A stretch of 64,000 bases of DNA, taken from assembly GCA_006386115.1 (NCBI GenBank), contig VFIW01000031.1:248001-312000 (forward strand). Direction: 5' to 3'. The translations under genes and the position numbers were made by a program. The DNA is from Globisporangium splendens. Lineage: Eukaryota; Oomycota; Peronosporomycetes; Pythiales; Pythiaceae. A model generated the notes under the pieces. That model saw only the letters and a program-made list of their open reading frames with translations. It was not told where the DNA came from and searched no databases. Positions 31,380 through 55,979 of the stretch are shown in pieces (the stretch's first letter is position 1; each line of letters starts with the position of its first letter).

Positions 31380-33011
31380 CCTCGGTTGACGCTGTCGTCG
31401 TGACCTCAGAGCCGCGTTCGCTCGCCACTTTGGTGTATTCCAGGGAACTTTTGGTTGCTTGAGACGGGCTTCCAGTCGGATTTACATTAGACGGCTCGCT
31501 GGCCGTGCGCGGGATGCGAATCAGCTTATCTGACCGCACGGACGACGTAGTGGAGAGCGTCGAGGCTGCGCGCTGCGTTCGCTGAGGTTGAGGCGTCTGT
31601 CGCCCTGCAGACGTCGCTTTCCGCTGCGGCAGTAAAGTGGCGCTCGCGAGGTCCCACGCAGGCATCTCCTTGGCTTCCAGAACGCACACGAGACAAAACT
31701 TGAGCGATTTGTGGATCACGGCCTCCGTTGTGACGTCCACCGCGAACTTTTTCACGACATTGCATCGATTGCACACGATCTGAAAGTCAAAATAGTTCGC
31801 AGCAACAACAGGAACAGCGAATGGTTAGAAATGAGACTCGGATCCCGGGTTCTATGGGTATACGCACAACAATAGGCGTCACGACGTACCTTTCGACAGA
31901 TATGGCACGCGGAGCCCGAGGTTGAGAGGATCCCAAACTTGTTGAACGACCGCCGACAGGACCCGCACTGACCAAAGTTGCTTCCTTCGGAATCGGCGGC
32001 GTTGCTTGGATCGTTGAGCCGCTGTTGGTGCTTGCCCATGAGCCACTTGAGCTTCTTGATGTACGCGTAGTCGACGACGCTGACGGCGGCGATAAGCGAT
32101 TCCGCGGCGAGCAGCACAGACACGCGCTCGATCATCTCACCCTGTGGGTCCGAGAAGCCGCGGCAAAAGAGGTCCACCGTCGTCTCGGTATTGGGTCGAA
32201 TCAGGAAGCAGAACGACAGGTTCGCGCGCATGATGTCGAATTTTGTGAGTTCAGGGATGCGAGAGACCGCGACCGAGTGCATGAGCAGGTAGCCCACTGG
32301 ATCGCCTCTCGAGTCCTTCGTGATGCCCGTGGCTTCCAAAATCAGGAAATCGCGGCGCTTGACGAACGAGTGGAGCACCGCTGGATGCTCCTTGATGAAC
32401 CACTTGACGCCGAGAAAGCGGAAGGGCTCCGTGGGCGTCGGTCCGAGCACTTTGGCCAAGATCCGCGCGTCGTCGAAGTGTTCGTTGACATGCGTACTGC
32501 GCCACCGCCATAACTCGTCGGTATCCGCAAAGCAGCCGTACATCGTGTCCTCCAACGTGCCGTTCAGCGTACCAGAGAGTGCAAGCAGTGGCACCTGCGG
32601 GCGCTTGAGCGTCTCGACGTAGCTCTCGACGTTCTCCGCCTGGGTCCGCATTGTCGGCGCGCACAGCGAGTGGCCGGATGACGCAGACGATTCAATCTGT
32701 GCCGATGTTGTATTTGTCGGCAAGCCGTCACTCTCGAGCTCCGTTGCCTGTGAACCGTTCGACACTGTGCGCGACTTCCTCTGCTGCATCTGCATCGCGA
32801 CGGTGCGGCGCTGCTTGTACACGTGGACACCCTCTTTCGAGCGCACGGGCTTCCAGTCGCTACGCGGGAACGTCTTGCCGGTCGCGAGGAAGCGCTCGTT
32901 GCACGCGAGCGTCTCGTCCAGCACCTTGTTGGCCTCGTCGATCAGCGCCTTCTGCTCGTCCGTCGAGAGCACCAGCTCCGGGAACGCGTTCGCAGGCAGC
33001 GTGAACTTCAT
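31351..33011 (-). CDS. START-domain protein with FYVE-like zinc finger, gene 1 (516 aa, 2 exons)
   Basis: Exon 1 33011-31890, intron 31889-31780 (110 bases, GTACGT...TTTCAG), exon 2 31779-31351, in frame. The N-terminal helix (DEQKALIDEANKVLDETLACNERFL) and SDWKPVRSKEGVHVYKQRR precede a START-like lipid-binding domain (about 130-330). A zinc finger follows with CxxC pairs at 348/351 and 369/372, then VCNRC and CLVC in exon 2. The basic RRHHC core of true FYVE fingers is absent, so PI3P binding is doubtful. The Ser/Thr-rich tail of about 100 residues is unique among the four copies here. The intron splits the zinc finger; the other three copies have none at this point. Probably membrane-lipid binding. 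Confidence 0.85.
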
Positions 33012-33746: not shown

Positions 33747-34141
33747 AGCGTTTGTGGAGACCAAGGTGGAGACTTTCGTGGCGCAACGGGAATGATGGCT
33801 CCCAGTCCGTCCTTCGTGTCTATTCAGTAAGAGCGCCGTCGCGTGGGTCAAGGTCAGCAGTCTTTTCCTACGATCGCCGTCCTTCCTGGACCCAAAGCAT
33901 CCGATGCACTTTATAATCGCTCCTGGTTCCCTGATCTCCCGCCTTGAACCAGCCGCGACCGGCGTTTGTGGCGAGTACACAAACGCAAGCGAAAACACGT
34001 GATTGTGCGGATTGCATCTGATTTTCCGAATGTGAGGCGCATGTGTGGGCGGCGTCATCTAATCCCGATTCACTCGAGCTGACTTTCTGCCACGTGTGAA
34101 GAGTGGCTGAACCGTTTTGTATATACAACACGCTGTTTTAC

Positions 34142-34374
34142 TTTCAATTAGCACACAGCAATAGGAGCATGCAGCCGACATATTCGCCGTGCAGGACCAA
34201 GCTCCAAGTATGTGCAGCAGAAGCCCCCGAAGAATCTGGCAATTGGCCATTAGGCATAACAGGAGGTGGCCGAGTAAAGTGATCAACCAGTTTGATGACC
34301 GTGGGACCGTGCTTGATCAGGACGCCACCCTCCTCCCGAACTGTGCGCAGCTCGACGTCGAGACGACTTGGCAC
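34142..34374 (-). other. Arm ORF without ATG, also at 39329-39561
   Basis: A 76-codon frame (RLDVELRTVREEGGVLIKHG..) present in both arms of palindrome 1 and opened only by GTG. It may be a fragment of a gene cut by the rearrangement. Not recognised. Confidence 0.25.
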
Positions 34375-35142
34375 GCAATTGGATTTTTATTCGCAAAAGT
34401 TGCACCCGAGCGGCCGTGACAACGCGCCTGCAGTTGCAGCGACGCCCGCTGCCATGATCACGTTCTAAATTCTCAGGTCCAATTTATGCGGCAGAGATCA
34501 TGGAAAGGTCCTCCACCACCGCAAGCAGCTCCGTTGTGTCCTCTTGACCCCCTCACGACTGCTGCACCGGACCAAGTAAACTCATTCTATTTTACCAACT
34601 ACTCGAGCAATTGTGATGCACAGGTTTGAGTCGTAAGCAAAGCATTTTGGTCCCCATCCACTTCACATTGCGAAGGTCTGAAGTCAGCACAGAGTCAGAC
34701 CAGCGCTTGAAGTAGGTTTATAGAATGCCCTGATGCTTCCCACCATAGACCACTGCACATCCCGGTGCTCGCAATGGTTCACCGACACAAGGTCACGCAG
34801 CTTTCACGACCTGTAGCGACTACAGTAGAAGGTACCATTCACGCCATCTACGTGGAGTTACTACACTGGTGCCTGGAAGAAGGCTTCGTCTTTTCACTTG
34901 CATTCACGCAGTGAGTCAGTAGTCTACTTTCATGAGACCGCAAAGGGCGGTGACTCATTTGGAAGATGAGCTCCTATTGATACAGTTGATTGATCGGAGT
35001 GCAATTCATCAACGAGAAAAGTTTCGAGAGCAAATCCCAATGACATCCAATTATTCAGCGCATGTCCTACAACTACGACACGACCGTACACACACACACA
35101 CAAAACAAGATCAAAACAATCATGACAAATATTTGGCGCCGT

Positions 35143-35871
35143 CTAGTACCCTGGTCCCGTCTCAACGACGTCCGTCGTCGCAGCCGTCGCCACGGTTGCG
35201 TTGGCAGCGTCCACTACAGTGGACACCGCGGTAGCAGCGGCACTGGCGGGGTCAACATTGCTCTTGCTTCCATTGGCAGGAGGAGCGCTGCCACCCGATT
35301 CAATACCAGCCTTCTTGAGGTCGATCTTGTAGAACTGGGCGTGGGGAGAGTAGCCCAGCTCCTTGATCTCGTCCTTGATGATCTGGACGCGCTCGGGACT
35401 GATAGGCGCGTCGTCCGAGACTGACGCCACGGACGAAGCAGCCGTGATCGGCGTTGGAGCACTCCCGCTGGCGCTGTCCAGCTTGTCGAGATCCACGCCC
35501 GCCATCTTGGCGTATGGCGAGTACCCCATCGCTTTCTTTTCGTTCTGCATGATCTTGATGCGAGCAGGACTGATCTCCTTGCCATACGAAGAGATCACTG
35601 GTGCAGCAGCTACCGGTGCTGGAGCTACTACTGGAGCAGTAGCTGTCGAGGCATCCACCTTATCGAGGTCCACTCCGGCGAGCTTGGCGTATGGCGAGTA
35701 CCCCATGACCTTCTTCTCATTCTGCATGATCTTGATGCGAGCAGGACTGATCGTCGCTGGTCCTTTGGAGGTGTACGTCATTTCCTCGGCGTGCACGCTA
35801 GGCGTGTCTTGGAAGCACGTGATCGTCGCGATGGCGACGGCGGCGTACACGATGGTGGTCTTGAGCTGCAT
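35143..35871 (-). CDS. Secreted three-repeat protein, copy 1 (242 aa)
   Basis: Signal peptide at residues 1 to about 28 (hydrophobic VYAAVAIATITCF, cleavage near SVHA/EE). The mature protein holds three repeats of 33 residues at 41-73, 100-132 and 157-189. The pattern is ISPARIKIMQNEKK-x-MGYSPYA, then AGVDLDK; the third repeat is the most divergent (ISPERVQIIKDEIKELGYSPHA). Ala/Pro/Ser/Thr-rich linkers join them, and the tail is Ala/Val/Thr-rich. No cysteine in the mature part, no RxLR, no membrane segment. Extracellular, function unknown; repeats of this kind could bind a polymer or cell-wall ligand, but that is a guess. Four near-identical copies lie within 12 kb. Copies 1 and 2 share Thr140, Ile142, Lys187, Glu191 and Val219; copy 1 alone has Ala13. 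Confidence 0.85.
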   Translation of the reverse strand: MQLKTTIVYAAVAIATITCFQDTPSVHAEEMTYTSKGPATISPARIKIMQNEKKVMGYSPYAKLAGVDLDKVDASTATAPVVAPAPVAAAPVISSYGKEISPARIKIMQNEKKAMGYSPYAKMAGVDLDKLDSASGSAPTPITAASSVASVSDDAPISPERVQIIKDEIKELGYSPHAQFYKIDLKKAGIESGGSAPPANGSKSNVDPASAAATAVSTVVDAANATVATAATTDVVETGPGY

Positions 35872-36139
35872 GCTGAGAGAGAGAAGTGGTAGAAGACGTT
35901 GGAGGGGAAGCTTGGAGCCTGAGGCGAAGTGTCAGCGCTTGGCGAGGTCGAGAAGTTGCTGTTGGTGAGAAGACGGCAAATTGAATTGTGGTGTGAGCGG
36001 TTGTCGCGAAACGAAACAAGACCTTTTGAGTTTCTCGACGTCTCGGACCAAGTTTCACCTGAAGAGTTCACTCGCAGCGAATGATGACCAAAGTCAAGTT
36101 CGGTGAACACGTCCGCTGAGCCGCTCAGTGTTGTTGGTC

Positions 36140-37563
36140 ATGACACTGCAACTCACATGGCATGAGCAGTAAGCGATGGCCATCCGATCCATATGCTTCC
36201 TGATGAAGACTTGCCAAATAGTTTATTTTGAGTGGGACTGTGATGGTCGTGGTGTGCTAGTAACGTGGAAGAAGGCTGAGTGGGGTGAGTAGCCAGCCTC
36301 TATTAATACTTGACCCTTTCTCGAAGTAAACTGTTTGTGGCCGACTGAGCCCAAAATCTGTAGCCGCCACGAATGGTATTATAGTTGTAGTGAAGCTGCG
36401 CTGGCAATCAATATCACTAGAATGGAGACAATGATTATCACGCGTGCGAATTAACAGTCCATTGTGGCAGTTCTCCACAAACTCGATCCAGGCATTCACT
36501 GAATGGAGAGTCGTCTCAAATCTGTGTACAGCTGATGATTATTGATGCGTGCTGTAATGTCACGATCTATGCAAACACACGTACGCCGTCCATTGAGCCA
36601 CGAACTCCCAGAAACGTTGAGGCTCTTGTAAGATCGAGGCGATACCTCAACCAACGTGGTCATTCTCGTGGACCAGACTATCTAATTGCCGCATCATAGT
36701 GTAACCTAGTCATGGACGCTCCCCTACAGCGGGCTCGGTGACCAAACTCATTCGAGGACCACTATGACTGCAGGAGTCGACTTAGCCGCAAACAATTTTC
36801 TCGGGAGAGGGTCGAGTGGAAGCTGAAACTCCACCCCAGCATACAGACGCGCTACATTCTGTGTGGTCATGGACCATGACCAGACCCACACGATGATCGC
36901 CATCACGACAAGATATCATGATCACACACCCTAGACAAAGGCGTTTATAATCCGAAAGCCAAACTGGTGTGGAACTACTTTTATGCGCTATGGGCGAAGA
37001 TCGGAATCACTCCTGGTCACGACCCCGCAATCTGGATCTTCAGTCTGGATCTACCAGATACTCCAAGGCATGCATGGACCACGATCAAGAGACACATTAT
37101 CGGGCACAAGTTCTCCAATGAACATCTCCAAGATCATCTCTATCCCGTCGCACACATGCTGTGGCGATATATGAGCGCGTCGCTCATACAGACCATTTGG
37201 TGTGCGCATCTGCGACGCATGGATTCGGATCCAATCGAATCGACTGCTGAGATGGCGATCACGATGACCAGATTAGAGGCAGGAATGTGAAACCTCACAC
37301 GACTCGCTGAAGCGCAAGCTGGAGATTCTGACGGTCACACGGTTGCAGCAGTTCTCAAGGGCTATGTCGCCTGCTTTCTCAGCCAAACCGACGCCATCCC
37401 CTTGACTCCAAGTGATACTCGCGGCGTTTACCTGTTTTTCGAGGTGGATCACGCGGCAATCCAGGACCAGGAGGACTGGATCCATTATCGTGCGTGTCCA
37501 CAAGGACTCGCACACAGCCAGTTTAATTTGGGCCGCGAGCATGGCGTATAGCAGGAAGGACAC
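36140..37563 (+). repeat. Palindrome 1 spacer (1424 bases)
   Basis: Unique centre of palindrome 1, repeated as 44824-46250 in palindrome 2. The left 0.8 kb has no gene; the region at about 36340-36760 resembles 43205-43640. The right 0.6 kb is a LINE fragment. Confidence 0.9.
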
Positions 37564-37573
37564 GACCAACAAC
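36951..37573 (+). mobile_element. LINE ORF2 fragment in palindrome 1 centre
   Basis: Sense-strand piece encoding WNYFYALWAKIGITPGHDPA and LEAGM, matching the connection/RNase H part of the LINE at 57.4-59.2 kb. Truncated at both ends; an in-frame stop after LEAGM and small indels around the FDGGSRGNPGPGG motif mark it as dead. The last ten bases (GACCAACAAC) lie inside the right arm and are mirrored at the inner end of the left arm. Confidence 0.85.
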
Positions 37574-39956
37574 ACTGAGCGGCTCAGCGGACGTGTTCAC
37601 CGAACTTGACTTTGGTCATCATTCGCTGCGAGTGAACTCTTCAGGTGAAACTTGGTCCGAGACGTCGAGAAACTCAAAAGGTCTTGTTTCGTTTCGCGAC
37701 AACCGCTCACACCACAATTCAATTTGCCGTCTTCTCACCAACAGCAACTTCTCGACCTCGCCAAGCGCTGACACTTCGCCTCAGGCTCCAAGCTTCCCCT
37801 CCAACGTCTTCTACCACTTCTCTCTCTCAGCATGCAGCTCAAGACCACCATCGTGTACGCCGCCGTCGTCATCGCGACGATCACGTGCTTCCAAGACACG
37901 CCTAGCGTGCACGCCGAGGAAATGACGTACACCTCCAAAGGACCAGCGACGATCAGTCCTGCTCGCATCAAGATCATGCAGAATGAGAAGAAGGTCATGG
38001 GGTACTCGCCATACGCCAAGCTCGCCGGAGTGGACCTCGATAAGGTGGATGCCTCGACAGCTACTGCTCCAGTAGTAGCTCCAGCACCGGTAGCTGCTGC
38101 ACCAGTGATCTCTTCGTATGGCAAGGAGATCAGTCCTGCTCGCATCAAGATCATGCAGAACGAAAAGAAAGCGATGGGGTACTCGCCATACGCCAAGATG
38201 GCGGGCGTGGATCTCGACAAGCTGGACAGCGCCAGCGGGAGTGCTCCAACGCCGATCACGGCTGCTTCGTCCGTGGCGTCAGTCTCGGACGACGCGCCTA
38301 TCAGTCCCGAGCGCGTCCAGATCATCAAGGACGAGATCAAGGAGCTGGGCTACTCTCCCCACGCCCAGTTCTACAAGATCGACCTCAAGAAGGCTGGTAT
38401 TGAATCGGGTGGCAGCGCTCCTCCTGCCAATGGAAGCAAGAGCAATGTTGACCCCGCCAGTGCCGCTGCTACCGCGGTGTCCACTGTAGTGGACGCTGCC
38501 AACGCAACCGTGGCGACGGCTGCGACGACGGACGTCGTTGAGACGGGACCAGGGTACTAGACGGCGCCAAATATTTGTCATGATTGTTTTGATCTTGTTT
38601 TGTGTGTGTGTGTGTACGGTCGTGTCGTAGTTGTAGGACATGCGCTGAATAATTGGATGTCATTGGGATTTGCTCTCGAAACTTTTCTCGTTGATGAATT
38701 GCACTCCGATCAATCAACTGTATCAATAGGAGCTCATCTTCCAAATGAGTCACCGCCCTTTGCGGTCTCATGAAAGTAGACTACTGACTCACTGCGTGAA
38801 TGCAAGTGAAAAGACGAAGCCTTCTTCCAGGCACCAGTGTAGTAACTCCACGTAGATGGCGTGAATGGTACCTTCTACTGTAGTCGCTACAGGTCGTGAA
38901 AGCTGCGTGACCTTGTGTCGGTGAACCATTGCGAGCACCGGGATGTGCAGTGGTCTATGGTGGGAAGCATCAGGGCATTCTATAAACCTACTTCAAGCGC
39001 TGGTCTGACTCTGTGCTGACTTCAGACCTTCGCAATGTGAAGTGGATGGGGACCAAAATGCTTTGCTTACGACTCAAACCTGTGCATCACAATTGCTCGA
39101 GTAGTTGGTAAAATAGAATGAGTTTACTTGGTCCGGTGCAGCAGTCGTGAGGGGGTCAAGAGGACACAACGGAGCTGCTTGCGGTGGTGGAGGACCTTTC
39201 CATGATCTCTGCCGCATAAATTGGACCTGAGAATTTAGAACGTGATCATGGCAGCGGGCGTCGCTGCAACTGCAGGCGCGTTGTCACGGCCGCTCGGGTG
39301 CAACTTTTGCGAATAAAAATCCAATTGCGTGCCAAGTCGTCTCGACGTCGAGCTGCGCACAGTTCGGGAGGAGGGTGGCGTCCTGATCAAGCACGGTCCC
39401 ACGGTCATCAAACTGGTTGATCACTTTACTCGGCCACCTCCTGTTATGCCTAATGGCCAATTGCCAGATTCTTCGGGGGCTTCTGCTGCACATACTTGGA
39501 GCTTGGTCCTGCACGGCGAATATGTCGGCTGCATGCTCCTATTGCTGTGTGCTAATTGAAAGTAAAACAGCGTGTTGTATATACAAAACGGTTCAGCCAC
39601 TCTTCACACGTGGCAGAAAGTCAGCTCGAGTGAATCGGGATTAGATGACGCCGCCCACACATGCGCCTCACATTCGGAAAATCAGATGCAATCCGCACAA
39701 TCACGTGTTTTCGCTTGCGTTTGTGTACTCGCCACAAACGCCGGTCGCGGCTGGTTCAAGGCGGGAGATCAGGGAACCAGGAGCGATTATAAAGTGCATC
39801 GGATGCTTTGGGTCCAGGAAGGACGGCGATCGTAGGAAAAGACTGCTGACCTTGACCCACGCGACGGCGCTCTTACCGAATAGACACGAAGGACGGACTG
39901 GGAGCCATCATTCCCGTTGCGCCACGAAAGTCTCCACCTTGGTCTCCACAAACGCT
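37564..39956 (-). repeat. Palindrome 1, right arm (2393 bases)
   Basis: Mirror of 33747-36139. It ends at 39956 exactly where palindrome 2 begins; one unmatched base (A, 39957) separates them. Confidence 0.93.
37832..38560 (+). CDS. Secreted three-repeat protein, copy 2 (242 aa)
   Basis: Mirror copy of the gene at 35143-35871, with the same signal peptide and three 33-residue repeats. Differs from copy 1 at residue 13 (Val). The gene points away from the spacer, so copies 1 and 2 are divergent and their 5' regions face each other across 1.96 kb. The 5' flank within the arm is the same for all four copies, so all may be transcribed from the same promoter sequence. Confidence 0.85.
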   Translation: MQLKTTIVYAAVVIATITCFQDTPSVHAEEMTYTSKGPATISPARIKIMQNEKKVMGYSPYAKLAGVDLDKVDASTATAPVVAPAPVAAAPVISSYGKEISPARIKIMQNEKKAMGYSPYAKMAGVDLDKLDSASGSAPTPITAASSVASVSDDAPISPERVQIIKDEIKELGYSPHAQFYKIDLKKAGIESGGSAPPANGSKSNVDPASAAATAVSTVVDAANATVATAATTDVVETGPGY

Positions 39957-39957
39957 A
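39957..39957. other. Junction between palindromes 1 and 2
   Basis: Left sequence ..CAAACGCT and right sequence CTGCTGCC.. are joined by a single A. At the outer left border (33746/33747) the first continues into GCGTCCAG on the complement, and at the outer right border (51106/51107) the second is preceded by GGTGCTC on the complement. So this is one breakpoint shared by two duplications, with little or no microhomology. Confidence 0.8.
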
Positions 39958-40176
39958 CTGCTGCCGCTGCGCTCTTCTTCCGTTCTTCCTCCCATCCGAG
40001 CGCTCTCCTCCTAAATGCTGATAAAGCAGAGAAAGAAAAAAAAAAAAAAAGAGACAGCCGCGCATCGACCAAAATTTGCTTGCACCAACCACCTCAGCGT
40101 CTCCATTCCCACTTCTCAAAGCCACGCGCAGTGTGGTAATCAACGCAATTTTATATTCACCCATCAGGGAAACAGC

Positions 40177-41445
40177 ATGCCGAGCGATCCGCAGGATGCG
40201 ATGCGGCCGCTCGTGCTGACGCCCGAAGAGCAGCTCGCGATCGCCGAGGAGGCCGAGCGCGTGATCGCCGAGACGCTCGCGACCAACGAGCTGTTCATCG
40301 CCAGCGGCCGCAAGTTGCCCCGACACGAATGGAAGCGCCTCAAGAGCAAGGAGAGTCTCCACGTGTACCGCTCCCGCCGAACGGACCCGTCCGAGAGCGT
40401 CGACGGCGACGACGAAGAGGAGGAAGAAGAAGAAAGTTTCAGTAGCACCAGTAGTAGCAGCGCGCTCCCGGCGACAGGGTCAAACCCGTCGAATCCGAGT
40501 ATCAGCAGCAGTTCGACGTCCAGCGACAGGAGCGATTCCAATACCGTGCGATCCGTGATCGGCATCATGAAGCCCACCGATACGCCGCTCGTGATCGCGA
40601 CGGGCATCATCCCGGGCACGGTGGAGGACGCCGTGTTCGGCTCACAGGGCCACACAGAACAGCTCTGGCGGTTCCGCGATGTGCACACGAACGACCAGGA
40701 CGATGGCATGAAGATCCTGGCGACAATTCTGAACCCCACACCGGAAGATCCGCTCAAGTCGCTCTCGCTCAAGTGGGTCCTGAATAACATCAATCCGCTG
40801 TCCCGGGCGCGCGACGCAGTGTATATTGAAGCCACGGGCATGGCGCGGGATTCCCGGGGCGAACCCTTCGGGTACTATTTGGTGCATTCGCTCGACAAGA
40901 TCGCACGAATACCCGGGCTCGGTCACCTCAGCATCGTGCGCGCGCAAATCTCCACATGCTGCATCTGCCGACCAAACGACCAGTCGTCGTTCGAGTTCTT
41001 TTGCCGCGGATTCTCGGAACTCGGCGGGAACTTCTCGGCAACGCTGGGCAATGCCATGTACGCTCAGTACTTGCTCGGCGCCGTGCACGTCGTGGACTTC
41101 GCGTACATCAAGAAACTGCTCTGGCTCGTGCACAAGAAGCGGTCGTGCGGGGACGCCGCGTTGACGGCGTGTCTCTCTTCCGAACCCAACGACTGCGCCA
41201 TCTGTACGGCAAAGCTGTCGAAACTCGGCCACTTGCTGTATAAGGGAGTCTCCTGCGAAGCATGCCAGCTCGTGGTGTGCCGCAAGTGCAGCGTTGTCAA
41301 GAAGGTACCGATCGACGATCCGAGCAGTGGGCAAGTCGTACAAAAGACGCTCTCGTTCTGCGTGCCGTGCATGATCGAAGCCAAAGAAGCGCCGACAGAG
41401 GAAGTCGCCGTCGCGCTCATGGAGATCATGTCAATCTGGTGCTGA
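40177..41445 (+). CDS. START-domain protein with FYVE-like zinc finger, gene 2 (422 aa)
   Basis: Intronless, ATG at 40177. The N-terminal helix (TPEEQLAIAEEAERVIAETLATNELFI) and HEWKRLKSKESLHVYRSRR precede an acidic Ser stretch (DDEEEEEEESFSSTSSSS), a START-like domain (about 125-325) and a zinc finger of four CxxC pairs (CAIC, CEAC, CRKC, CVPC). The RRHHC core of canonical FYVE is missing (GVSCEACQLVVCRKC). Probably lipid or membrane binding; target unknown. Differs from its mirror copy, gene 3, at six residues (for example Asn/Ser in ILxPTPED, Ser/Pro in IMxIWC). The 5' region matches only the mirror copy, gene 3, up to 39958, then breaks at the junction, so the distal promoter may be lost. 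Confidence 0.88.
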   Translation: MPSDPQDAMRPLVLTPEEQLAIAEEAERVIAETLATNELFIASGRKLPRHEWKRLKSKESLHVYRSRRTDPSESVDGDDEEEEEEESFSSTSSSSALPATGSNPSNPSISSSSTSSDRSDSNTVRSVIGIMKPTDTPLVIATGIIPGTVEDAVFGSQGHTEQLWRFRDVHTNDQDDGMKILATILNPTPEDPLKSLSLKWVLNNINPLSRARDAVYIEATGMARDSRGEPFGYYLVHSLDKIARIPGLGHLSIVRAQISTCCICRPNDQSSFEFFCRGFSELGGNFSATLGNAMYAQYLLGAVHVVDFAYIKKLLWLVHKKRSCGDAALTACLSSEPNDCAICTAKLSKLGHLLYKGVSCEACQLVVCRKCSVVKKVPIDDPSSGQVVQKTLSFCVPCMIEAKEAPTEEVAVALMEIMSIWC

Positions 41446-41963
41446 CGCATGAGCGTTTCAAGCAGTCCATGTACGCTTGCCGCGACACGCGCATAGATGA
41501 TGCCTACTTTGCGTGCTTTGTAGCGTAGAATATGGATATCAATAGGTAGTATCCTTATTAATATTTTGCCGAAAATGAGCGTATAATAGCCCAAGACACT
41601 GATTCGGTCTTTGGGGTTCTGGATTTTGTTCAGGCGCTGGTCTCTCGATTGCGTGGTCGCCACGTCTCAGTAAAGATCAAGGCCACAGCGAGTCTCAGGT
41701 TCGTGTCCTCTTTGCACGCAATTGATGGATCCGAGAAATCCGTGACGTTGTGCGTTTCTCTTGTCCATCGTTGTCTGTTTACCAGGTACGTTCTCCTTGA
41801 ACACACAACTTGAACAGCAGTCCAACGACGGCAGCTCTTTTGCCCTCCGGGCGGTTGAGCCCCAGTGGTTCTTGCTCTCATTCTGCGTTTTCCGCTCAAC
41901 CAAGCAAGTGATCTTCTCCAGTTCCGGCGCATTCTCAAGTTCTTGTTGCATCCAATTCCGACC
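41446..41963. other. Spacer between START gene 2 and Gly/Tyr-rich gene
   Basis: 3' flank of START gene 2 and 5' flank of the secreted gene at 41964. The mirror copy is 49111-49619. No further gene seen. Confidence 0.5.
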
Positions 41964-42647
41964 ATGAAGACTGTCAAGTGCATCGGATTTGCGGCTGCTG
42001 CTCTCTTTGCCGTCATGTCGAGTGCCGAGGTTGCTGCCCAGAACACGACGCCAACATCGTCGTTGGTGGAAGCCACGGTTGTTGAGGAAAGTAGCCCAGC
42101 GTCCATTTCCACGACATCGGCTGCCTCGACGAGTGGCAAGACAGAAAGTGCCAACACGGTGTCGGTCACGTCTGACGACAACCAGGAAGGCTACGACTCG
42201 AGCGACTCCTACGACTACGGCAAGAAGGACAAGAAGCACGACAAGGGCGACTACAGTTATGGCAAGGGGAAGAAGAAGAAGTATGACTCGGACGACTATG
42301 ACTACAGCGAGGACTATGACTACGGCAAGAACTACGGCGGCAGCTATCGGTATAAGGATCACGGCAAGAAGTACGATGACTACAGTTCCTATGGCGTCTA
42401 CGACTACGACAACTATCGGCCTGGGTACGGATACTATGGCTATGGGAACCAATATGGCAATGGCTACGGCGCGTACGGTTATGGGAGCGACTACGGCAAC
42501 GACTATGACTATGGATACGGCGACGGCAATAAGAAGTATGGAGGTGACTATTACGGCAAGGGGTACAACGGCTACTACGACAACGGCTACAACGGATACG
42601 GTGGCTACGGCTACCCATATTCGTATGGCTACTACTACAATTACTGA
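41964..42647 (+). CDS. Secreted Gly/Tyr/Asp-rich protein, copy 1 (227 aa)
   Basis: Signal peptide at residues 1-24 (MKTVKCIGFAAAALFAVMSSAEVA). Next comes a Ser/Thr-rich region (27-75), then a Tyr/Lys/Asp region (YDSSDSYDYGKKDKKHDKGD) and a C-terminal half made of Y-G and Y-D repeats (GYGYYGYGNQYGNGYGAYGYGS). Such sequence is typical of structural or matrix proteins and can be cross-linked through Tyr; extracellular location is inferred from the signal peptide. Family not recognised. The antisense strand shows a long open frame that is only a by-product of the repeats. The mirror copy at 48427-49110 differs at a few charged residues (Asp to His, Gly to Asp near residue 78-85). Confidence 0.85.
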   Translation: MKTVKCIGFAAAALFAVMSSAEVAAQNTTPTSSLVEATVVEESSPASISTTSAASTSGKTESANTVSVTSDDNQEGYDSSDSYDYGKKDKKHDKGDYSYGKGKKKKYDSDDYDYSEDYDYGKNYGGSYRYKDHGKKYDDYSSYGVYDYDNYRPGYGYYGYGNQYGNGYGAYGYGSDYGNDYDYGYGDGNKKYGGDYYGKGYNGYYDNGYNGYGGYGYPYSYGYYYNY

Positions 42648-43700
42648 GCGTTGTGTGCGAGTGGTCATGTGGTTATCCCTTCGTAAATGTTGCTGAAAAT
42701 TAGCAGTGTAAGCAAATCAATGTAGCAAAAATAACGTGAAATCAACACAAAACTCGTATCGTATCATTCTTAAAGACCTTTGTCGCTTCTCAATACCAAC
42801 AACTCTCAAGCATGTGCCTAGTCTGCTCGTCCGTTTCAGCTTGAAGCATGAATCTTTATCATAATGCCCTTAAAGCCGTCAATACGTGCAGCGAAATGGC
42901 ATCTTGAAAGGTGGCCACATGATCCTTTAGGTTGAGGCGAACAGCTGGATGAGACCAACCTCAACTTCAGATGAGATGGCGAACACAGAAACAGCTGTTG
43001 GAGCTGGTAAACCACGCACAGAGCAGTGTGTGCAACGTTGCGCTGGCATATCGCGCCAACAGCTCTAGTCCACACGATCTTGCACTCTATGCTCGCCCTC
43101 AACTGCATTCGGCTACTGAACGTATAATATACAAGGGCACGATAATGGCAATGTGGCCATACGATGCCGAGCCCAGAGGGTCTGGTCAAGTGCGCCGGGT
43201 GGCGTCACAGCCTGGACTGTTCCTTTCCATAATGAAGCTACGTTGGCAATCAACACTGTTAACACATTCCAGGATGGACACGAAAAGCACCTGCTAGACT
43301 TGGCCGCGATACTTTAGGTATCAAACTCTCAGATGCTAGGCTATCGATCCTCCACAAACCCAATGCTGTAGTACAGTCGTGATGGAATGGAGAATCGTGT
43401 CAAGTGCCGCACAGTTGACGATTCCTTGACGTGCACTGCAATATTACACCCTTATCCATGGACGCGAATGTCACCATTGAAACACGAGACATTGAGGTCC
43501 TCGAATGATCGAGGCGTCGACTTCACCCGATGCGGTTAGTCTCGCAGACCAGACTGTTTGGACGTCGTGTCGTATTGCCGCCCGGTTATGGACTTGTCAC
43601 ACATTTGCACCCATGCAGTTATCCAGTTTGAACCCATGAGAGCTCAGCTCAATTTCATGTATCGTTGAAGTCATTTGGTTGAATGGAATCCCTTAACGGG
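42648..43700. other. Arm region without assigned gene, contains an old repeat
   Basis: A 108-codon plus-strand ORF (42971-43297) and overlapping antisense ORFs are present in both arms, with no recognised domain. The part at 43205-43640 is alignable by eye with 36390-36760 of the palindrome spacers: ATGAAGCTACGTTGGCAATC against GTGAAGCTGCGCTGGCAATC, then ACCAGACT and a GTTATGGAC/GTCATGGAC end. It is likely an old interspersed repeat. Confidence 0.45.
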
Positions 43701-43826
43701 AAAAATTTCGAGAGCAAATCCCAATGACATCCAATTATTCAGCGCATGTCCTACAACTACGACACGACCGTACACACACGCACACAAAACAAGATCAAAA
43801 CAATCATGACAAATATTTGGCGCCGT

Positions 43827-44555
43827 CTAGTACCCTGGTCCCGTCTCAACGACGTCCGTCGTCGCAGCCGTCGCCACGGTTGCGTTGGCAGCGTCCACTG
43901 CAGTGGACACCGCGGTAGCAGCGGCACTGGCGGGGTCAACATTGCTCTTGCTTCCATTGGCAGGAGGAGCGCTGCCGCCCGATCCAATACCAGCCTCCTT
44001 GAGGTCGATCTTGTAGAACTGGGCGTGGGGAGAGTAGCCCAGCTCCTTGATCTCGTCCTTGATGATCTGGACGCGCTCAGGACTGATAGGCGCGTCGTCC
44101 GAGACTGACGCCACGGACGAAGCAGCTGTGGTCGGCGCTGGAGCACTCCCGCTGGCGCTGTCCAGCTTGTCGAGATCCACGCCCGCCATCTTGGCGTATG
44201 GCGAGTACCCCATCGCTTTCTTTTCGTTCTGCATGATCTTGATGCGAGCAGGACTGATCTCCTTGCCATACGAAGAGATCACTGGTGCAGCAGCTACCGG
44301 TGCTGGAGCTACTACTGGAGCAGTAGCTGTCGAGGCATCCACCTTATCGAGGTCCACTCCGGCGAGCTTGGCGTATGGCGAGTACCCCATGACCTTCTTC
44401 TCATTCTGCATGATCTTGATGCGAGCAGGACTGATCGTCGCTGGTCCTTTGGAGGTGTACGTCATTTCCTCGGCGTGCACGCTAGGCGTGTCTTGGAAGC
44501 ACGTGATCGTCGCGATGACGACGGCGGCGTACACGATGGTGGTCTTGAGCTGCAT
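43827..44555 (-). CDS. Secreted three-repeat protein, copy 3 (242 aa)
   Basis: Same architecture as copy 1: signal peptide and three 33-residue ISPARIKIMQNEKK repeats. Copies 3 and 4 have identical protein sequence and share Ala140, Thr142, Glu187, Gly191 and Ala219, which separates them from copies 1 and 2. Minus strand, divergent from copy 4. Confidence 0.85.
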   Translation of the reverse strand: MQLKTTIVYAAVVIATITCFQDTPSVHAEEMTYTSKGPATISPARIKIMQNEKKVMGYSPYAKLAGVDLDKVDASTATAPVVAPAPVAAAPVISSYGKEISPARIKIMQNEKKAMGYSPYAKMAGVDLDKLDSASGSAPAPTTAASSVASVSDDAPISPERVQIIKDEIKELGYSPHAQFYKIDLKEAGIGSGGSAPPANGSKSNVDPASAAATAVSTAVDAANATVATAATTDVVETGPGY

Positions 44556-44823
44556 GCTGAGAGAGAGAAGTGGTAGAAGACGTTGGAGGGGAAGCTTGGA
44601 GCCTGAGGCGAAGTGTCAGCGCTTGGCGAGGTCGAGAAGTTGCTGTTGGTGAGAAGACGGCAAATTGAATTGTGGTGTGAGCGGTTGTCGCGAAACGAAA
44701 CAAGACCTTTTGAGTTTCTCGACGTCTCGGACCAAGTTTCACCTGAAGAGTTCACTCGCAGCGAATGATGACCAAAGTCAAGTTCGGTGAACACGTCCGC
44801 TGAGCCGCTCAGTGTTGTTGGTC

Positions 44824-46250
44824 ATGACACTGCAACTCACATGGCATGAGCAGTAAGCGATGGCCATCCGATCCATATGCTTCCTGATGAAGACTTGCCA
44901 AATAGTTTATTTTGAGTGGGACTGTGATGGTCGTGGTGTGCTAGTAACGTGGAAGAAGGCTGAGTGGGGTGAGTAGCCAGCCTCTATTAATACTTGACCC
45001 TTTCTCGAAGTAAACTGTTTGTGGCCGACTGAGCCCAAAATCTGTAGCCGCCACGAATGGTATTATAGTTGTAGTGAAGCTGCGCTGGCAATCAATATCA
45101 CTAGAATGGAGACAATGATTATCACGCGTGCGAATTAACAGTCCATTGTGGCAGTTCTCCACAAACTCGATCCAGGCATTCACTGAATGGAGAGTCGTCT
45201 CAAATCTGTGTACAGCTGATGATTATTGATGCGTGCTGTAATGTCACGATCTATGCAAACACACGTACGCCGTCCATTGAGCCACGAACTCCCAGAAACG
45301 TTGAGGCTCTTGTAAGATCGAGGCGATACCTCAACCAACGTGGTCATTCTCGTGGACCAGACTATCTAATTGCCGCATCATAGTGTAACCTAGTCATGGA
45401 CGCTCCCCTACAGCGGGCTCGGTGACCAAACTCATTCGAGGACCACTATGACTGCAGGAGTCGACTTAGCCGCAAACAATTTTCTCGGGAGAGGGTCGAG
45501 TGGAAGCTGAAACTCCACCCCAGCATACAGACGCGCTACATTCTGTGTGGTCATGGACCATGACCAGACCCACACGATGATCGCCATCACGACAAGATAT
45601 CATGATCACACACCCTAGACAAAGGCGTTTATAATCCGAAAGCCAAACTGGTGTGGAACTACTTTTATGCGCTATGGGCGAAGATCGGAATCACTCCTGG
45701 TCACGACCCCGCAATCTGGATCTTCAGTCTGGATCTACCAGATACTCCAAGGCATGCATGGACCACGATCAAGAGACACATTATCGGACACAAGTTCTCC
45801 AATGAACATCTCCAAGATCATCTCTATCCCGTCGCACACATGCTGTGGCGATATATGAGCGCGTCGCTCATACAGCCATTTGGTGTGCGCATCTGCGACG
45901 CATGGATTCGGATCCAATCGAATCGACTGCTGAGATGGCGATCACGATGACCAGATTAGAGGCAGGAATGTGAAACCTCACACGACTCGCTGAAGCGCAA
46001 GCTGGAGATTCTGACGGTCACACGGTTGCAGCAGTTCTCAAGGGCTATGTCGACTGCTTTCTCAGCCAAACCGACGCCATCCCCTTGACTCCAAGTGATA
46101 CTCGCGGCGTTTACCTGTTGTTTTCGATGGTGGATCACGCGGCAATCCAGGACCAGGAGGGACTGGATCCATTATCGTGCGTGTCCACAAGGACTCGCAC
46201 ACAGCCAGTTTAATTTGGGCCGCGAGCATGGCGTATAGCAGGAAGGACAC
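44824..46250 (+). repeat. Palindrome 2 spacer (1427 bases)
   Basis: Second copy of the palindrome 1 spacer, same orientation, with a few small indels (for example near 45876 and 46119). Confidence 0.9.
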
Positions 46251-46260
46251 GACCAACAAC
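45635..46260 (+). mobile_element. LINE ORF2 fragment in palindrome 2 centre
   Basis: Same truncated piece as 36951-37573, with the same two ends, so it was present before the core was duplicated. A base pair missing near 45876 shifts the frame after SASLIQ. Confidence 0.85.
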
Positions 46261-46518
46261 ACTGAGCGGCTCAGCGGACGTGTTCACCGAACTTGACTTT
46301 GGTCATCATTCGCTGCGAGTGAACTCTTCAGGTGAAACTTGGTCCGAGACGTCGAGAAACTCAAAAGGTCTTGTTTCGTTTCGCGACAACCGCTCACACC
46401 ACAATTCAATTTGCCGTCTTCTCACCAACAGCAACTTCTCGACCTCGCCAAGCGCTGACACTTCGCCTCAGGCTCCAAGCTTCCCCTCCAACGTCTTCTA
46501 CCACTTCTCTCTCTCAGC

Positions 46519-47247
46519 ATGCAGCTCAAGACCACCATCGTGTACGCCGCCGTCGTCATCGCGACGATCACGTGCTTCCAAGACACGCCTAGCGTGCACG
46601 CCGAGGAAATGACGTACACCTCCAAAGGACCAGCGACGATCAGTCCTGCTCGCATCAAGATCATGCAGAATGAGAAGAAGGTCATGGGGTACTCGCCATA
46701 CGCCAAGCTCGCCGGAGTGGACCTCGATAAGGTGGATGCCTCGACAGCTACTGCTCCAGTAGTAGCTCCAGCACCGGTAGCTGCTGCACCAGTGATCTCT
46801 TCGTATGGCAAGGAGATCAGTCCTGCTCGCATCAAGATCATGCAGAACGAAAAGAAAGCGATGGGGTACTCGCCATACGCCAAGATGGCGGGCGTGGATC
46901 TCGACAAGCTGGACAGCGCCAGCGGGAGTGCTCCAGCGCCGACCACAGCTGCTTCGTCCGTGGCGTCAGTCTCGGACGACGCGCCTATCAGTCCTGAGCG
47001 CGTCCAGATCATCAAGGACGAGATCAAGGAGCTGGGCTACTCTCCCCACGCCCAGTTCTACAAGATCGACCTCAAGGAGGCTGGTATTGGATCGGGCGGC
47101 AGCGCTCCTCCTGCCAATGGAAGCAAGAGCAATGTTGACCCCGCCAGTGCCGCTGCTACCGCGGTGTCCACTGCAGTGGACGCTGCCAACGCAACCGTGG
47201 CGACGGCTGCGACGACGGACGTCGTTGAGACGGGACCAGGGTACTAG
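46519..47247 (+). CDS. Secreted three-repeat protein, copy 4 (242 aa)
   Basis: Mirror of copy 3 with identical protein sequence: signal peptide, repeats at 41-73, 100-132 and 157-189, Ala-rich tail ending ETGPGY. See copy 1 for the domain description. Plus strand, pointing away from the spacer. Confidence 0.85.
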   Translation: MQLKTTIVYAAVVIATITCFQDTPSVHAEEMTYTSKGPATISPARIKIMQNEKKVMGYSPYAKLAGVDLDKVDASTATAPVVAPAPVAAAPVISSYGKEISPARIKIMQNEKKAMGYSPYAKMAGVDLDKLDSASGSAPAPTTAASSVASVSDDAPISPERVQIIKDEIKELGYSPHAQFYKIDLKEAGIGSGGSAPPANGSKSNVDPASAAATAVSTAVDAANATVATAATTDVVETGPGY

Positions 47248-48426
47248 ACGGCGCCAAATATTTGTCATGATTGTTTTGATCTTGTTTTGTGTGCGTGTGT
47301 GTACGGTCGTGTCGTAGTTGTAGGACATGCGCTGAATAATTGGATGTCATTGGGATTTGCTCTCGAAATTTTTCCCGTTAAGGGATTCCATTCAACCAAA
47401 TGACTTCAACGATACATGAAATTGAGCTGAGCTCTCATGGGTTCAAACTGGATAACTGCATGGGTGCAAATGTGTGACAAGTCCATAACCGGGCGGCAAT
47501 ACGACACGACGTCCAAACAGTCTGGTCTGCGAGACTAACCGCATCGGGTGAAGTCGACGCCTCGATCATTCGAGGACCTCAATGTCTCGTGTTTCAATGG
47601 TGACATTCGCGTCCATGGATAAGGGTGTAATATTGCAGTGCACGTCAAGGAATCGTCAACTGTGCGGCACTTGACACGATTCTCCATTCCATCACGACTG
47701 TACTACAGCATTGGGTTTGTGGAGGATCGATAGCCTAGCATCTGAGAGTTTGATACCTAAAGTATCGCGGCCAAGTCTAGCAGGTGCTTTTCGTGTCCAT
47801 CCTGGAATGTGTTAACAGTGTTGATTGCCAACGTAGCTTCATTATGGAAAGGAACAGTCCAGGCTGTGACGCCACCCGGCGCACTTGACCAGACCCTCTG
47901 GGCTCGGCATCGTATGGCCACATTGCCATTATCGTGCCCTTGTATATTATACGTTCAGTAGCCGAATGCAGTTGAGGGCGAGCATAGAGTGCAAGATCGT
48001 GTGGACTAGAGCTGTTGGCGCGATATGCCAGCGCAACGTTGCACACACTGCTCTGTGCGTGGTTTACCAGCTCCAACAGCTGTTTCTGTGTTCGCCATCT
48101 CATCTGAAGTTGAGGTTGGTCTCATCCAGCTGTTCGCCTCAACCTAAAGGATCATGTGGCCACCTTTCAAGATGCCATTTCGCTGCACGTATTGACGGCT
48201 TTAAGGGCATTATGATAAAGATTCATGCTTCAAGCTGAAACGGACGAGCAGACTAGGCACATGCTTGAGAGTTGTTGGTATTGAGAAGCGACAAAGGTCT
48301 TTAAGAATGATACGATACGAGTTTTGTGTTGATTTCACGTTATTTTTGCTACATTGATTTGCTTACACTGCTAATTTTCAGCAACATTTACGAAGGGATA
48401 ACCACATGACCACTCGCACACAACGC

Positions 48427-49110
48427 TCAGTAATTGTAGTAGTAGCCATACGAATATGGGTAGCCGTAGCCACCGTATCCGTTGTAGCCGTTGTCGTAGT
48501 AGCCGTTGTACCCCTTGCCGTAATAGTCACCTCCATACTTCTTATTGCCGTCGCCGTATCCATAGTCATAGTCGTTGCCGTAGTCGCTCCCATAACCGTA
48601 CGCGCCGTAGCCATTGCCATATTGGTTCCCATAGCCATAGTATCCGTACCCAGGCCGATAGTTGTCGTAGTCGTAGACGCCATAGGAACTGTAGTCATCG
48701 TACTTCTTGCCGTGATCCTTATACCGATAGCTGCCGCCGTAGTTCTTGCCGTAGTCATAGTCCTCGCTGTAGTCATAGTCGTCCGAGTCATACTTCTTCT
48801 TCTTCCCCTTGCCATAACTGTAGTCGTCCTTGTCGTGCTTCTTGTGCTTCTTACCGTAGTCGTAGGAGTCACTCGAGTCGTAGCCTTCCTGGTTGTCGTC
48901 AGACGTGACCGACACCGTGTTGGCACTTTCTGTCTTGCCACTCGTCGAGGCAGCCGATGTCGTGGAAATGGACGCTGGGCTACTTTCCTCAACAACCGTG
49001 GCTTCCACCAACGACGATGTTGGCGTCGTGTTCTGGGCAGCAACCTCGGCACTCGACATGACGGCAAAGAGAGCAGCAGCCGCAAATCCGATGCACTTGA
49101 CAGTCTTCAT
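48427..49110 (-). CDS. Secreted Gly/Tyr/Asp-rich protein, copy 2 (227 aa)
   Basis: Mirror of 41964-42647 with the same signal peptide and Y-G repeats. Here the Lys-rich patch reads KKHKKHDKDD where copy 1 has KKDKKHDKGD. Tail to tail with secreted gene copy 4, about 1.2 kb apart. Confidence 0.85.
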   Translation of the reverse strand: MKTVKCIGFAAAALFAVMSSAEVAAQNTTPTSSLVEATVVEESSPASISTTSAASTSGKTESANTVSVTSDDNQEGYDSSDSYDYGKKHKKHDKDDYSYGKGKKKKYDSDDYDYSEDYDYGKNYGGSYRYKDHGKKYDDYSSYGVYDYDNYRPGYGYYGYGNQYGNGYGAYGYGSDYGNDYDYGYGDGNKKYGGDYYGKGYNGYYDNGYNGYGGYGYPYSYGYYYNY

Positions 49111-49619
49111 GGTCGGAATTGGATGCAACAAGAACTTGAGAATGCGCCGGAACTGGAGAAGATCACTTGCTTGGTTGAGCGGAAAACGCAGAATGAGAGC
49201 AAGAACCACTGGGGCTCAACCGCCCGGAGGGCAAAAGAGCTGCCGTCGTTGGACTGCTGTTCAAGTTGTGTGTTCAAGGAGAACGTACCTGGTAAACAGA
49301 CAACGATGGACAAGAGAAACGCACAACGTCACGGATTTCTCGGATCCATCAATTGCGTGCAAAGAGAACACGAACCTGAGACTTGCTGTTGCCTTGATCT
49401 TTACTGAGACGTGGTGACCACGCAATCGAGAGACCAGCGCCTGAACAAAATCCAGAACCCCAAAGACCGAATCAGTGTCTTGGGCTATTATACGCTCATT
49501 TTCAGCAAAATATTAATAAGGATACTACCTATCGATATCCATATTCTACGCTGCAAAGTAGGCATCATCTATGCGCGTGTCGCGGCAGGCGTGCATGGAC
49601 TGCTCGAAGCGTTCATGCG

Positions 49620-50888
49620 TCAGCACCAGATTGGCATGATCTCCATGAGCGCGACGGCGACTTTCTCTGTCGGCGCTTCTTTGGCTTCGATCATGCACGG
49701 CACGCAGAACGAGAGCGTCTTTTGTACGACTTGCCCACTGCTCGGATCGTCGATCGGTACCTTCTTGACGACGCTGCACTTGCGGCACACCACGAGCTGG
49801 CATGCTTCGCAGGAGACTCCCTTATACAGCAAGTGGCCGAGTTTCGACAGCTTTGCCGTGCAGATGGCGCAGTCGTTGGGTTCGGAAGAGAGACACGCCG
49901 TCAACGCGGCGTCCCCGCACGGCCGCTTCTTGTGCACGAGCCAGAGTAGTTTCTTGATGTACGCAAAGTCCACGACATGCACGGCGCCGAGCAAGTACTG
50001 AGCGTACATGGCATTGCCCAGCGTTGCCGAGAAGTTCCCGCCGAGTTCCGAGAATCCGCGGCAAAAGAACTCGAACGACGACTGGTCGTTTGGTCGGCAG
50101 ATGCAGCATGTGGAGACTTGCGCGCGCACGATGCTGAGGTGACCGAGCCCGGGTATTCGTGCGATCTTGTCGAGCGAATGCACCAAATAGTACCCGAAGG
50201 GTTCACCCCGGGCATCCCGCGCCATGCCTGTGGCTTCAATATACACTGCGTCGCGCGCCCGGGACAGCGGGTTGATGTTATTCAGGACCCACTTGAGCGA
50301 GAGCGACTTGAGCGGATCTTCCGGTGTGGGGCTCAGAATTGTCGCCAGGATCTTCATGCCATCGTCCTGGTCGTTCGTGTGCACATCGCGGAACCGCCAG
50401 AGCTGCTCTGTGTGGCCCTGTGAGCCGAACACGGCGTCCTCCACCGTGCCCGGGATGATGCCCGTCGCGATCACGAGCGGCGTATCGGTGGGCTTCATGA
50501 TGCCGATCACGGATCGCACGGTATTGGAATCGCTCCTGTCGCTGGACGTCGAACTGCTGCTGATACTCGGATTCGACGGGTTTGACCCTGTCGCCGGGAG
50601 CGCGCTGCTACTACTGGTGCTACTGAAACTTTCTTCTTCTTCCTCCTCTTCGTCGTCGCCGTCGACGCTCTCGGACGGGTCCGTTCGGCGGGAGCGGTAC
50701 ACGTGGAGACTCTCCTTGCTCTTGAGGCGCTTCCATTCGTGTCGGGGCAACTTGCGGCCGCTGGCGATGAACAGCTCGTTGGTCGCGAGCGTCTCGGCGA
50801 TCACGCGCTCGGCCTCCTCGGCGATCGCGAGCTGCTCTTCGGGCGTCAGCACGAGCGGCCGCATCGCATCCTGCGGATCGCTCGGCAT
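49620..50888 (-). CDS. START-domain protein with FYVE-like zinc finger, gene 3 (422 aa)
   Basis: Mirror of gene 2 and the copy with the intact natural 5' flank. ATG at 50888; the frame is open upstream but only through Ser/Lys-rich flank. START-like domain at about 125-325, zinc finger with CAIC, CEAC, CRKC and CVPC pairs. Replacements against gene 2 include Ser for Asn in ILSPTPED, Ala in MARDARG, Val in VRAQVST, Pro in KKRPCGD, Lys in APTEKVAV and Pro in IMPIWC. All motifs are intact in both, so both may be functional. Confidence 0.88.
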   Translation of the reverse strand: MPSDPQDAMRPLVLTPEEQLAIAEEAERVIAETLATNELFIASGRKLPRHEWKRLKSKESLHVYRSRRTDPSESVDGDDEEEEEEESFSSTSSSSALPATGSNPSNPSISSSSTSSDRSDSNTVRSVIGIMKPTDTPLVIATGIIPGTVEDAVFGSQGHTEQLWRFRDVHTNDQDDGMKILATILSPTPEDPLKSLSLKWVLNNINPLSRARDAVYIEATGMARDARGEPFGYYLVHSLDKIARIPGLGHLSIVRAQVSTCCICRPNDQSSFEFFCRGFSELGGNFSATLGNAMYAQYLLGAVHVVDFAYIKKLLWLVHKKRPCGDAALTACLSSEPNDCAICTAKLSKLGHLLYKGVSCEACQLVVCRKCSVVKKVPIDDPSSGQVVQKTLSFCVPCMIEAKEAPTEKVAVALMEIMPIWC

Positions 50889-51106
50889 GCTGTTTCCCTG
50901 ATGGGTGAATATAAAATTGCGTTGATTACCACACTGCGCGTGGCTTTGAGAAGTGGGAATGGAGACGCTGAGGTGGTTGGTGCAAGCAAATTTTGGTCGA
51001 TGCGCGGCTGTCTCTTTTTTTTTTTTTTCTTTCTCTGCTTTATCAGCATTTAGGAGGAGAGCGCTCGGATGGGAGGAAGAACGGAAGAAGAGCGCAGCGG
51101 CAGCAG

Positions 51107-55975: not shown

Positions 55976-55979
55976 TCGT

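What the first reader, a model, noticed from the sequence alone, without database searches (positions are those of the whole stretch)
33747..51106. Two abutting long palindromes that share one 3.7-kb core
Palindrome 1 (arms 2.4 kb) and palindrome 2 (arms 4.9 kb) have different outer arms but the same core (35016-38687 and 43701-47373), with spacers in the same orientation. Read as letters, the locus is L-B-A-S-A'-B'-C-A-S-A'-C'-R, where primes mark inverted copies. This is what strand switching between inverted copies A and A' plus one illegitimate join would give, as in inverted-triplication-type rearrangements. It gives four copies of one secreted-protein gene and two of START and Gly/Tyr-rich genes. 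Mirror coordinates are seen directly; the mechanism is inferred.
Basis: partly seen in the sequence, partly recalled or inferred. Interest (0 to 1): 0.9.

Follow-up and report, generated by a model that had tools for sequence, protein, structure and literature searches.

The report
Two neighbouring palindromes sharing one core
In a plant-pathogenic water mould, a small inverted gene pair was doubled together with its neighbours, so that two long DNA mirror images now stand side by side; the arrangement is unusual to look at, but ordinary duplication and inversion can explain it.

Summary
Palindrome 1 has arms 33747-36142 / 37561-39956 (99.9% identical). Palindrome 2 has arms 39954-44826 / 46248-51110 (99.1%). 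They share the core A-S-A' (99.2%, spacers in the same orientation). The window comes from Globisporangium splendens (oomycete; a PacBio plus Illumina hybrid assembly).

Reversing one interval between the first A' and the second A turns the locus into a plain 8.7-kb tandem duplication at 99.2% identity. Tandem duplication of B-A-S-A'-C' through one 3-bp (GCT) join, followed by inversion between the 1.1-kb repeats A and A', gives the same structure. One assembly cannot tell the routes apart. It is not an inverted triplication: no segment is tripled. The structural precedent is the human Y-chromosome P8 'palindrome birth', whose authors favoured a replicative origin.

The spacer is part single-copy DNA, part LINE fragment that meets A' at a 10-bp microhomology. 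Differences between copies are strongly clustered, as gene conversion would give, though hybrid assembly could also homogenise copies. The reads were not examined. I rate it a new member of a known kind, of moderate interest.

The parts
33747..35010 (+). B, outer arm of palindrome 1 (left copy)
   Evidence: 1 difference from B' in 1264 bp
35011..36142 (+). A, first copy; holds a 242-aa ORF at 35143-35871 (-)
36143..37560 (+). S1, spacer of palindrome 1 (1418 bp)
   Evidence: for 36143-36950 the own-genome search returned only S1 and S2
36951..37573 (+). LINE fragment in S1, truncated at both ends, reaching 13 bp into A'
37561..38692 (-). A', first inverted copy; 242-aa ORF at 37832-38560 (+)
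38693..39956 (-). B', inverted outer arm of palindrome 1
39954..39956 (.). illegitimate join B'/C with 3-bp microhomology GCT (then one mismatched base)
39954..43694 (+). C, outer arm of palindrome 2 (left copy); 422-aa FYVE/START-like ORF 40177-41445 (+) and Gly/Tyr-rich ORF 41967-42647 (+)
43695..44826 (+). A, second copy; 242-aa ORF 43827-44555 (-)
44827..46247 (+). S2, spacer of palindrome 2 (1421 bp), same orientation as S1
45635..46260 (+). LINE fragment in S2
46248..47379 (-). A', second inverted copy; 242-aa ORF 46519-47247 (+)
47380..51110 (-). C', outer arm of palindrome 2 (right copy); FYVE/START-like ORF 49620-50888 (-), Gly/Tyr-rich ORF 48427-49107 (-)
   Evidence: the paralogues flanking the locus (31752-33011 and 53013-54281) are also on the minus strand, so this is probably the ancestral orientation

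Best explanation
An ancestral locus L-B-A-S-A'-C'-R carried one small inverted gene pair, A and A'. The interval B-A-S-A'-C' (about 8.7 kb) was duplicated in tandem through one microhomology join (GCT) between the far end of C' and the near end of B. Homologous recombination between the first A' and the second A, which are inverted 1.1-kb repeats, then flipped the middle (A'-C'-B-A). This left two abutting palindromes that share one core. Gene conversion between arms and between cores has since kept parts of the copies identical. Shown: the present structure in the assembly, the single join, the reversibility to a plain tandem duplication in silico, the flank-linked outer-A differences and the clustering of differences. 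Inferred: the order and nature of the events, the ancestral order, and the action of gene conversion. The final inversion should be reversible, so the tandem form may exist in other nuclei or isolates.
For: Reversing 38641-43746, between paired points in A' and A chosen 3' of the genes, gives one direct repeat of 8691 aligned bp at 99.2% whose copies overlap by 3 bp. The one join without long homology has 3-bp microhomology. 11 of 11 P1/P2-separating sites in A are shared by both arms of each palindrome, as flank-linked ancestral A and A' predict. The arm-distinguishing letter at 36140/37563 recurs at 44824/46250, so the two cores descend from one core. The paralogues flanking the locus in the window lie on the minus strand like C'. 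Own-genome searches with 954 of the 1264 bp of B, with A plus the non-LINE part of S and with C returned high-identity matches only at this locus. Differences between P2 arms are clustered: 31 of 34 events in 40659-42247, and a 2577-bp gap that 0 of 100,000 random placements reached.
Against: No outgroup or allelic locus was available, so the ancestral order is inferred. The structure alone does not separate two steps from one replicative event; for the closest precedent (human P8 HG01377) the authors wrote that no simple rearrangement could explain it and listed MMBIR (PMC6790999). B/B' (1 difference in 1264) and the middle of C/C' (31 events in 1589 bp; Fisher p about 2e-7) differ strongly in divergence, which needs later homogenisation or different parental haplotypes. 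Farther out on the contig two paralogue matches at 235-240 kb lie on the plus strand, so strand is only a weak guide to ancestry.
Confidence: 0.55

Rival explanations
1. One replicative event. A fork copying L-B-A-S-A' switches from A' to A on the other strand, copies B', jumps by microhomology to the far end of C', copies C-A, switches back at A, and resumes S-A'-C'-R.
For: It gives the same final order with the same single join. Short microhomology at the join suits MMBIR/FoSTeS. [quoted passage not shown] At PLP1, 16 of 17 cases were DUP-TRP/INV-DUP with one junction in inverted repeats (PMC4352052 abstract and passages).
Against: It needs two inverted-repeat switches plus one join in one event, whereas one duplication and one reversible inversion suffice. 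No tripled segment is present.
Confidence: 0.25
2. Assembly or haplotype artefact: the orientation of the middle, or the duplication itself, was created by the hybrid assembler.
For: The assembly is MaSuRCA hybrid (PMC7163027, whole text), which can misplace or homogenise near-identical copies (my general knowledge). Reads were not examined. The almost identical inner 2.6 kb of the P2 arms could be homogenised by consensus. Few or no reads may span the whole 17.4 kb (0 expected if all reads had the mean length, about 54 if lengths were exponential).
Against: By the paper's figures PacBio data come to about 191x with a mean read of about 14.6 kb. A rough calculation with 500-base anchors expects about 97-117 reads across L to the join and 32-83 across the join to R, under fixed or exponential read lengths. 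The join links two sequences that share only 3 bp there, which an overlap assembler would hardly invent. P2 arm differences are 28 transitions to 4 transversions; the 422-aa gene copies differ by 9 synonymous and 6 non-synonymous changes with frames open; and the 6 amino-acid differences split 3:3 against the G. ultimum relative. That is evolved divergence, not read error. Spacers of 1.4 kb speak against simple missed-adapter hairpin reads.
Confidence: 0.12
3. Breakage and rejoining: sister-chromatid exchange between A and A' makes L-B-A-S-A'-B'-L' (dicentric) and R'-C-A-S-A'-C'-R (acentric); both break and are end-joined at B'/C.
For: It gives the same order with one end-joined junction; this was worked out on the letters only, by no call.
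Against: It needs two rare unstable intermediates to be repaired to each other without loss. Nothing seen requires it.
Confidence: 0.04

Closest known systems
Human Y-chromosome palindrome P8, variant HG01377 ('palindrome birth'; PMC6790999, section 9 and passages seen)
   Same: A pre-existing palindrome is duplicated so that a second palindrome with the same core and outer arms taken from the flank appears. Gene copies rise from 2 to 4, and there is one novel junction with short microhomology.
   Different: Human Y, 436.7-kb new palindrome; here 6.2 and 11.2 kb abutting directly in an oomycete. Their junction has 5 bp of microhomology, ours 3 bp. They list MMBIR; I prefer duplication plus inversion.
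DUP-TRP/INV-DUP rearrangements at PLP1 and MECP2 (PMC4352052, abstract and passages seen)
   Same: Inverted repeats direct one kind of junction; the other joins unique sequence.
   Different: The defining tripled inverted middle segment is absent here.
Human 22q11.2 LCRA repeat unit: 105-kb segment flanked by 25-kb inverted repeats (PMC13103302, abstract and passages seen)
   Same: A unit flanked by inverted repeats increases in copy number, its copies are found in either orientation, and inversions map to the inverted repeats.
   Different: Scale and organism. There population variation is documented; here only one assembly was seen.
Origin-dependent inverted-repeat amplification (ODIRA; PMC10766186, passages seen)
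   Same: Produces palindromic junctions and inverted copies; secondary rearrangements can widen the spacer to 1.1-34.9 kb, so it could have made the first A-S-A' pair.
   Different: Its product is an inverted triplication, with first junctions at 5-6 bp inverted repeats 40-80 bp apart. Here no segment is tripled.

Membership tests
Inverted triplication (DUP-TRP/INV-DUP) | a segment present three times with the middle copy inverted | tested here: not met
   B, S and C twice each, A four times (two ancestral), none three times
Inverted triplication (DUP-TRP/INV-DUP) | one junction inside inverted repeats, one with microhomology or end joining | tested here: inconclusive
   one microhomology join is present; inverted-repeat exchanges leave no visible mark, so one or two are possible
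Tandem duplication rearranged by inverted-repeat inversion | one inversion between inverted repeats restores a single direct tandem repeat | tested here: met
   8691 aligned bp, 99.2%
Tandem duplication rearranged by inverted-repeat inversion | the non-inverted tandem form, or the single-copy ancestor, exists in relatives | not testable with these tools
   The genome search holds no relatives of this genome; relatives were seen as proteins only
Palindrome kept by arm-to-arm gene conversion | long identical tracts beside diverged tracts between arms | tested here: met
   31 of 34 P2 events in 1.6 kb and a 2577-bp gap between successive events; caveat that hybrid assembly may homogenise, and that conversion itself was not observed
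ODIRA amplicon | tripled segment with palindromic junctions | tested here: not met
   no tripling. The 1.1-kb repeats with 1.4-kb spacers would need secondary rearrangement

The most novel reading that the evidence does not exclude
The four alternating A copies make this a standing switch. Recombination among A and A' keeps interconverting palindromic and tandem forms and flipping spacers in living nuclei, while conversion keeps four copies of a secreted-type gene alike, so that the palindrome pair acts as an amplification and homogenisation device for one gene.
Probability: 0.12. Interest if true: 0.55.

Novelty: new member of a known kind. Interest (0 to 1): 0.35.

Why it matters
It is a compact, base-level case of how a small inverted gene pair can grow into two palindromes. 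At 17.4 kb it is short enough for long reads to settle. In four searches of the held library (only listings seen, 20 of 32, 10 of 80, 10 of 176 and 10 of 38 papers) I saw no such report for an oomycete. It also shows that abutting palindromes with a shared core do not by themselves prove replication strand switching.

Tried and rejected
Rejected: chance similarity (kilobase arms). Missed-adapter PacBio hairpins (spacers of 1.4 kb; evolved differences). Inverted triplication (copy numbers). A mobile element as the cause of the palindromes: the LINE fragment in S lacks both LINE ends (4 of 28 LINE loci were printed for this comparison) and the arms hold host genes, so it looks like a passenger or filler; it meets A' at 10 exact bp (12 of 13) of microhomology. 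A second haplotype copy elsewhere in the assembly: none at high identity for the parts searched (954 bp of B; A and the non-LINE part of S; C). L and R were not searched.

Led nowhere: Rfam (0 matches at gathering scores). A protein search with the Gly/Tyr-rich gene (0 of 1856 candidates). No relative of this genome is held for the genome search, so the ancestral order could not be checked. Four paper searches for an oomycete precedent showed none in the rows listed.

Left unresolved: whether the 13 bp at the A/S and S/A' ends were copied from the LINE or were native microhomology; which of A and A' is the older copy. If the microhomology reading holds, A runs on into the single-copy part of S without a LINE break, which would make A the older; no outgroup DNA tests this.
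Full report
WHAT WAS CHECKED. A self-comparison of the window confirms both palindromes, the shared core and the common orientation of the spacers. Base-level alignment gives 3 differences between the 2.4-kb arms of palindrome 1. Between the 4.9-kb arms of palindrome 2 there are 34 events: 32 substitutions (28 transitions, 4 transversions) and 2 indels. Within A, 11 sites separate both P1 copies from both P2 copies; one further site is private to the first copy and one distinguishes left from right arms in both palindromes. The 961 leftmost bases of the spacer are identical in S1 and S2; the differences lie in the right part.

WHERE IT IS FROM. The window is part of contig C123 (437,699 bases) of a 53.3-Mb assembly of 195 contigs. 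Two proteins named FI667_g8093 and FI667_g8063 of Globisporangium splendens are listed with a contig of exactly that length. The published assembly (PMC7163027, whole text) is 53.3 Mb with 52.6% GC, a 1.7-Mb longest scaffold and 195 scaffolds over 10 kb, made from PacBio Sequel and Illumina data with MaSuRCA. The window has 52.5% GC. I take the identification as firm.

CONTENT. Each A holds one intact 242-aa ORF with a signal-like start (by eye). It has no Pfam hit (2 of 4 copies scanned), five weak relatives (38-41%) on contig C67, and one 79% identical relative from a JGI source, the only outside hit among 7991 scored candidates. C and C' hold a 422-aa gene, whose best outside relative is a 90% identical G. 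ultimum protein named FYVE-type, and a 226-aa Gly/Tyr-rich gene. Pfam did not call START, and called FYVE only below cut-off in the right-hand neighbouring paralogue. Paralogues flank the locus at 31752-33011 and 53013-54281, both on the minus strand. All duplicated genes have open frames. The 242-aa copies of P1 and P2 differ by 3 synonymous and 5 non-synonymous changes; against the JGI relative 3 of the 5 amino-acid changes look derived in P2 and 2 in P1.

THE SPACER. For bases 36143-36950 the own-genome search returned only S1 and S2. Bases 36951-37573 are a fragment of a LINE-type element with many copies: 40 scored of 444 candidates, 38 of them outside this locus. Copies in the window encode reverse transcriptase and RNase H. 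The fragment lacks both ends of the element and meets A' at CACGACCAACAAC in the LINE against CATGACCAACAAC on the other arm. 28 of 30 LINE occurrences found by a script in 28 loci had exactly the first form. So the original inverted pair was probably joined through about 10 bp of microhomology inside a LINE. Whether those bases were copied from the LINE or were native is unresolved.

HOW THE TWO PALINDROMES ARE RELATED. Written L-B-A-S-A'-B'-C-A-S-A'-C'-R, the locus becomes L-[B-A-S-A'-C'][B-A-S-A'-C']-R when the stretch between the first A' and second A is reversed. I did this in silico with cut points outside the genes and found one direct repeat of 8691 aligned bp at 99.2%, its copies overlapping by 3 bp. 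The only join with no long homology is B'/C, with GCT shared and one mismatched base beside it. One tandem duplication plus one inverted-repeat inversion therefore suffices. The structure cannot choose between them. I favour the two-step path because, from general knowledge, each step is common and the second is reversible.

SUPPORT FOR THE ANCESTOR. If B-A and A'-C' were ancestral blocks, outer-A differences should follow the flank: 11 of 11 do. The arm-specific letter at the inner end of A is the same in both palindromes, so the cores have one origin. C' shares its strand with the paralogues flanking the locus. Against this, two matches farther left on the contig are on the other strand, and no outgroup DNA was available.

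CONVERSION OR ARTEFACT. P2 differences are clustered: 31 of 34 lie in 40659-42247, and 0 of 100,000 random placements reached the observed 2577-bp gap. B/B' differs at 1 of 1264 bases against 31 events in 1589 bases of mid-C (Fisher p about 2e-7). Inner A shows 0 P1/P2-separating sites in 688 bases against 11 in the outer 444 (p about 3e-5). These stretches were chosen after seeing the data, so the p values are descriptive. Gene conversion is the natural reading. Different parental haplotypes, or consensus homogenisation by the hybrid assembler, are not excluded. The six amino-acid differences between the 422-aa copies split 3:3 against G. ultimum, and each copy differs from it at 38 of 419 residues. 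The duplication is thus probably younger than that species split, with independent change in both copies. From the published read totals I expect tens of reads across each half, but between 0 and about 54 across the whole 17.4 kb depending on the length distribution. I have not seen the reads.

A SECOND PALINDROME. Paralogues of the Gly/Tyr-rich gene on contig C162 also form an inverted pair: arms of 1074 bp at 99.5%, about 3.8 kb apart, the largest ORF between them having 807 aa. Of the sites found, both with a full-length gene of this family therefore hold it as close inverted duplicates. A third, weaker site on C30 was not examined. A genome-wide base rate was not obtained.

COMPARISON WITH THE KNOWN. 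The human Y palindrome P8 variant HG01377 is the nearest case: a palindrome duplicated with flank, copies rising from two to four, one junction with 5-bp microhomology. The 22q11.2 repeat unit shows multiplication and inversion of a segment flanked by inverted repeats (PMC13103302, abstract and passages). DUP-TRP/INV-DUP (PMC4352052, abstract and passages) and ODIRA (PMC10766186, passages) share ingredients but have a tripled segment, which is absent here. Searches for an oomycete report (only the listed rows seen) showed none.

VERDICT. Interest 0.35.

Noticed in passing
55766-62938: LINE copies, one of them tail to tail with an inverted piece, forming a third palindrome at 56364-58320 (95% self-match, almost no spacer); the pieces match the LINE fragment in S1 and S2.
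   Followed up: partly
L045 (G000:C162:1572001-1582000), 2612-3685 and 7446-8518: Another inverted pair: Gly/Tyr-rich paralogues in 1074-bp arms at 99.5%, about 3.8 kb apart; the largest ORF between them has 807 aa.
   Followed up: partly
1082-3376 and 3933-6797 (minus strand): Neighbouring genes with three and two HSF-type DNA-binding stretches; about their first 215 bp are 95.8% identical, as recent partial duplication or conversion would give.
   Followed up: partly
G000:C67:489559-523770: Five weak relatives (38-41%) of the 242-aa protein, all on the plus strand.
   Followed up: no
18042-20531 (minus strand): 829-aa ORF with a SWIM zinc finger just above the family cut-off, possibly derived from a transposase (that reading is recalled, not tested).
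   Followed up: no
16746-17798 (plus strand): 350-aa ORF with three WRKY19-type zinc-finger stretches.
   Followed up: no
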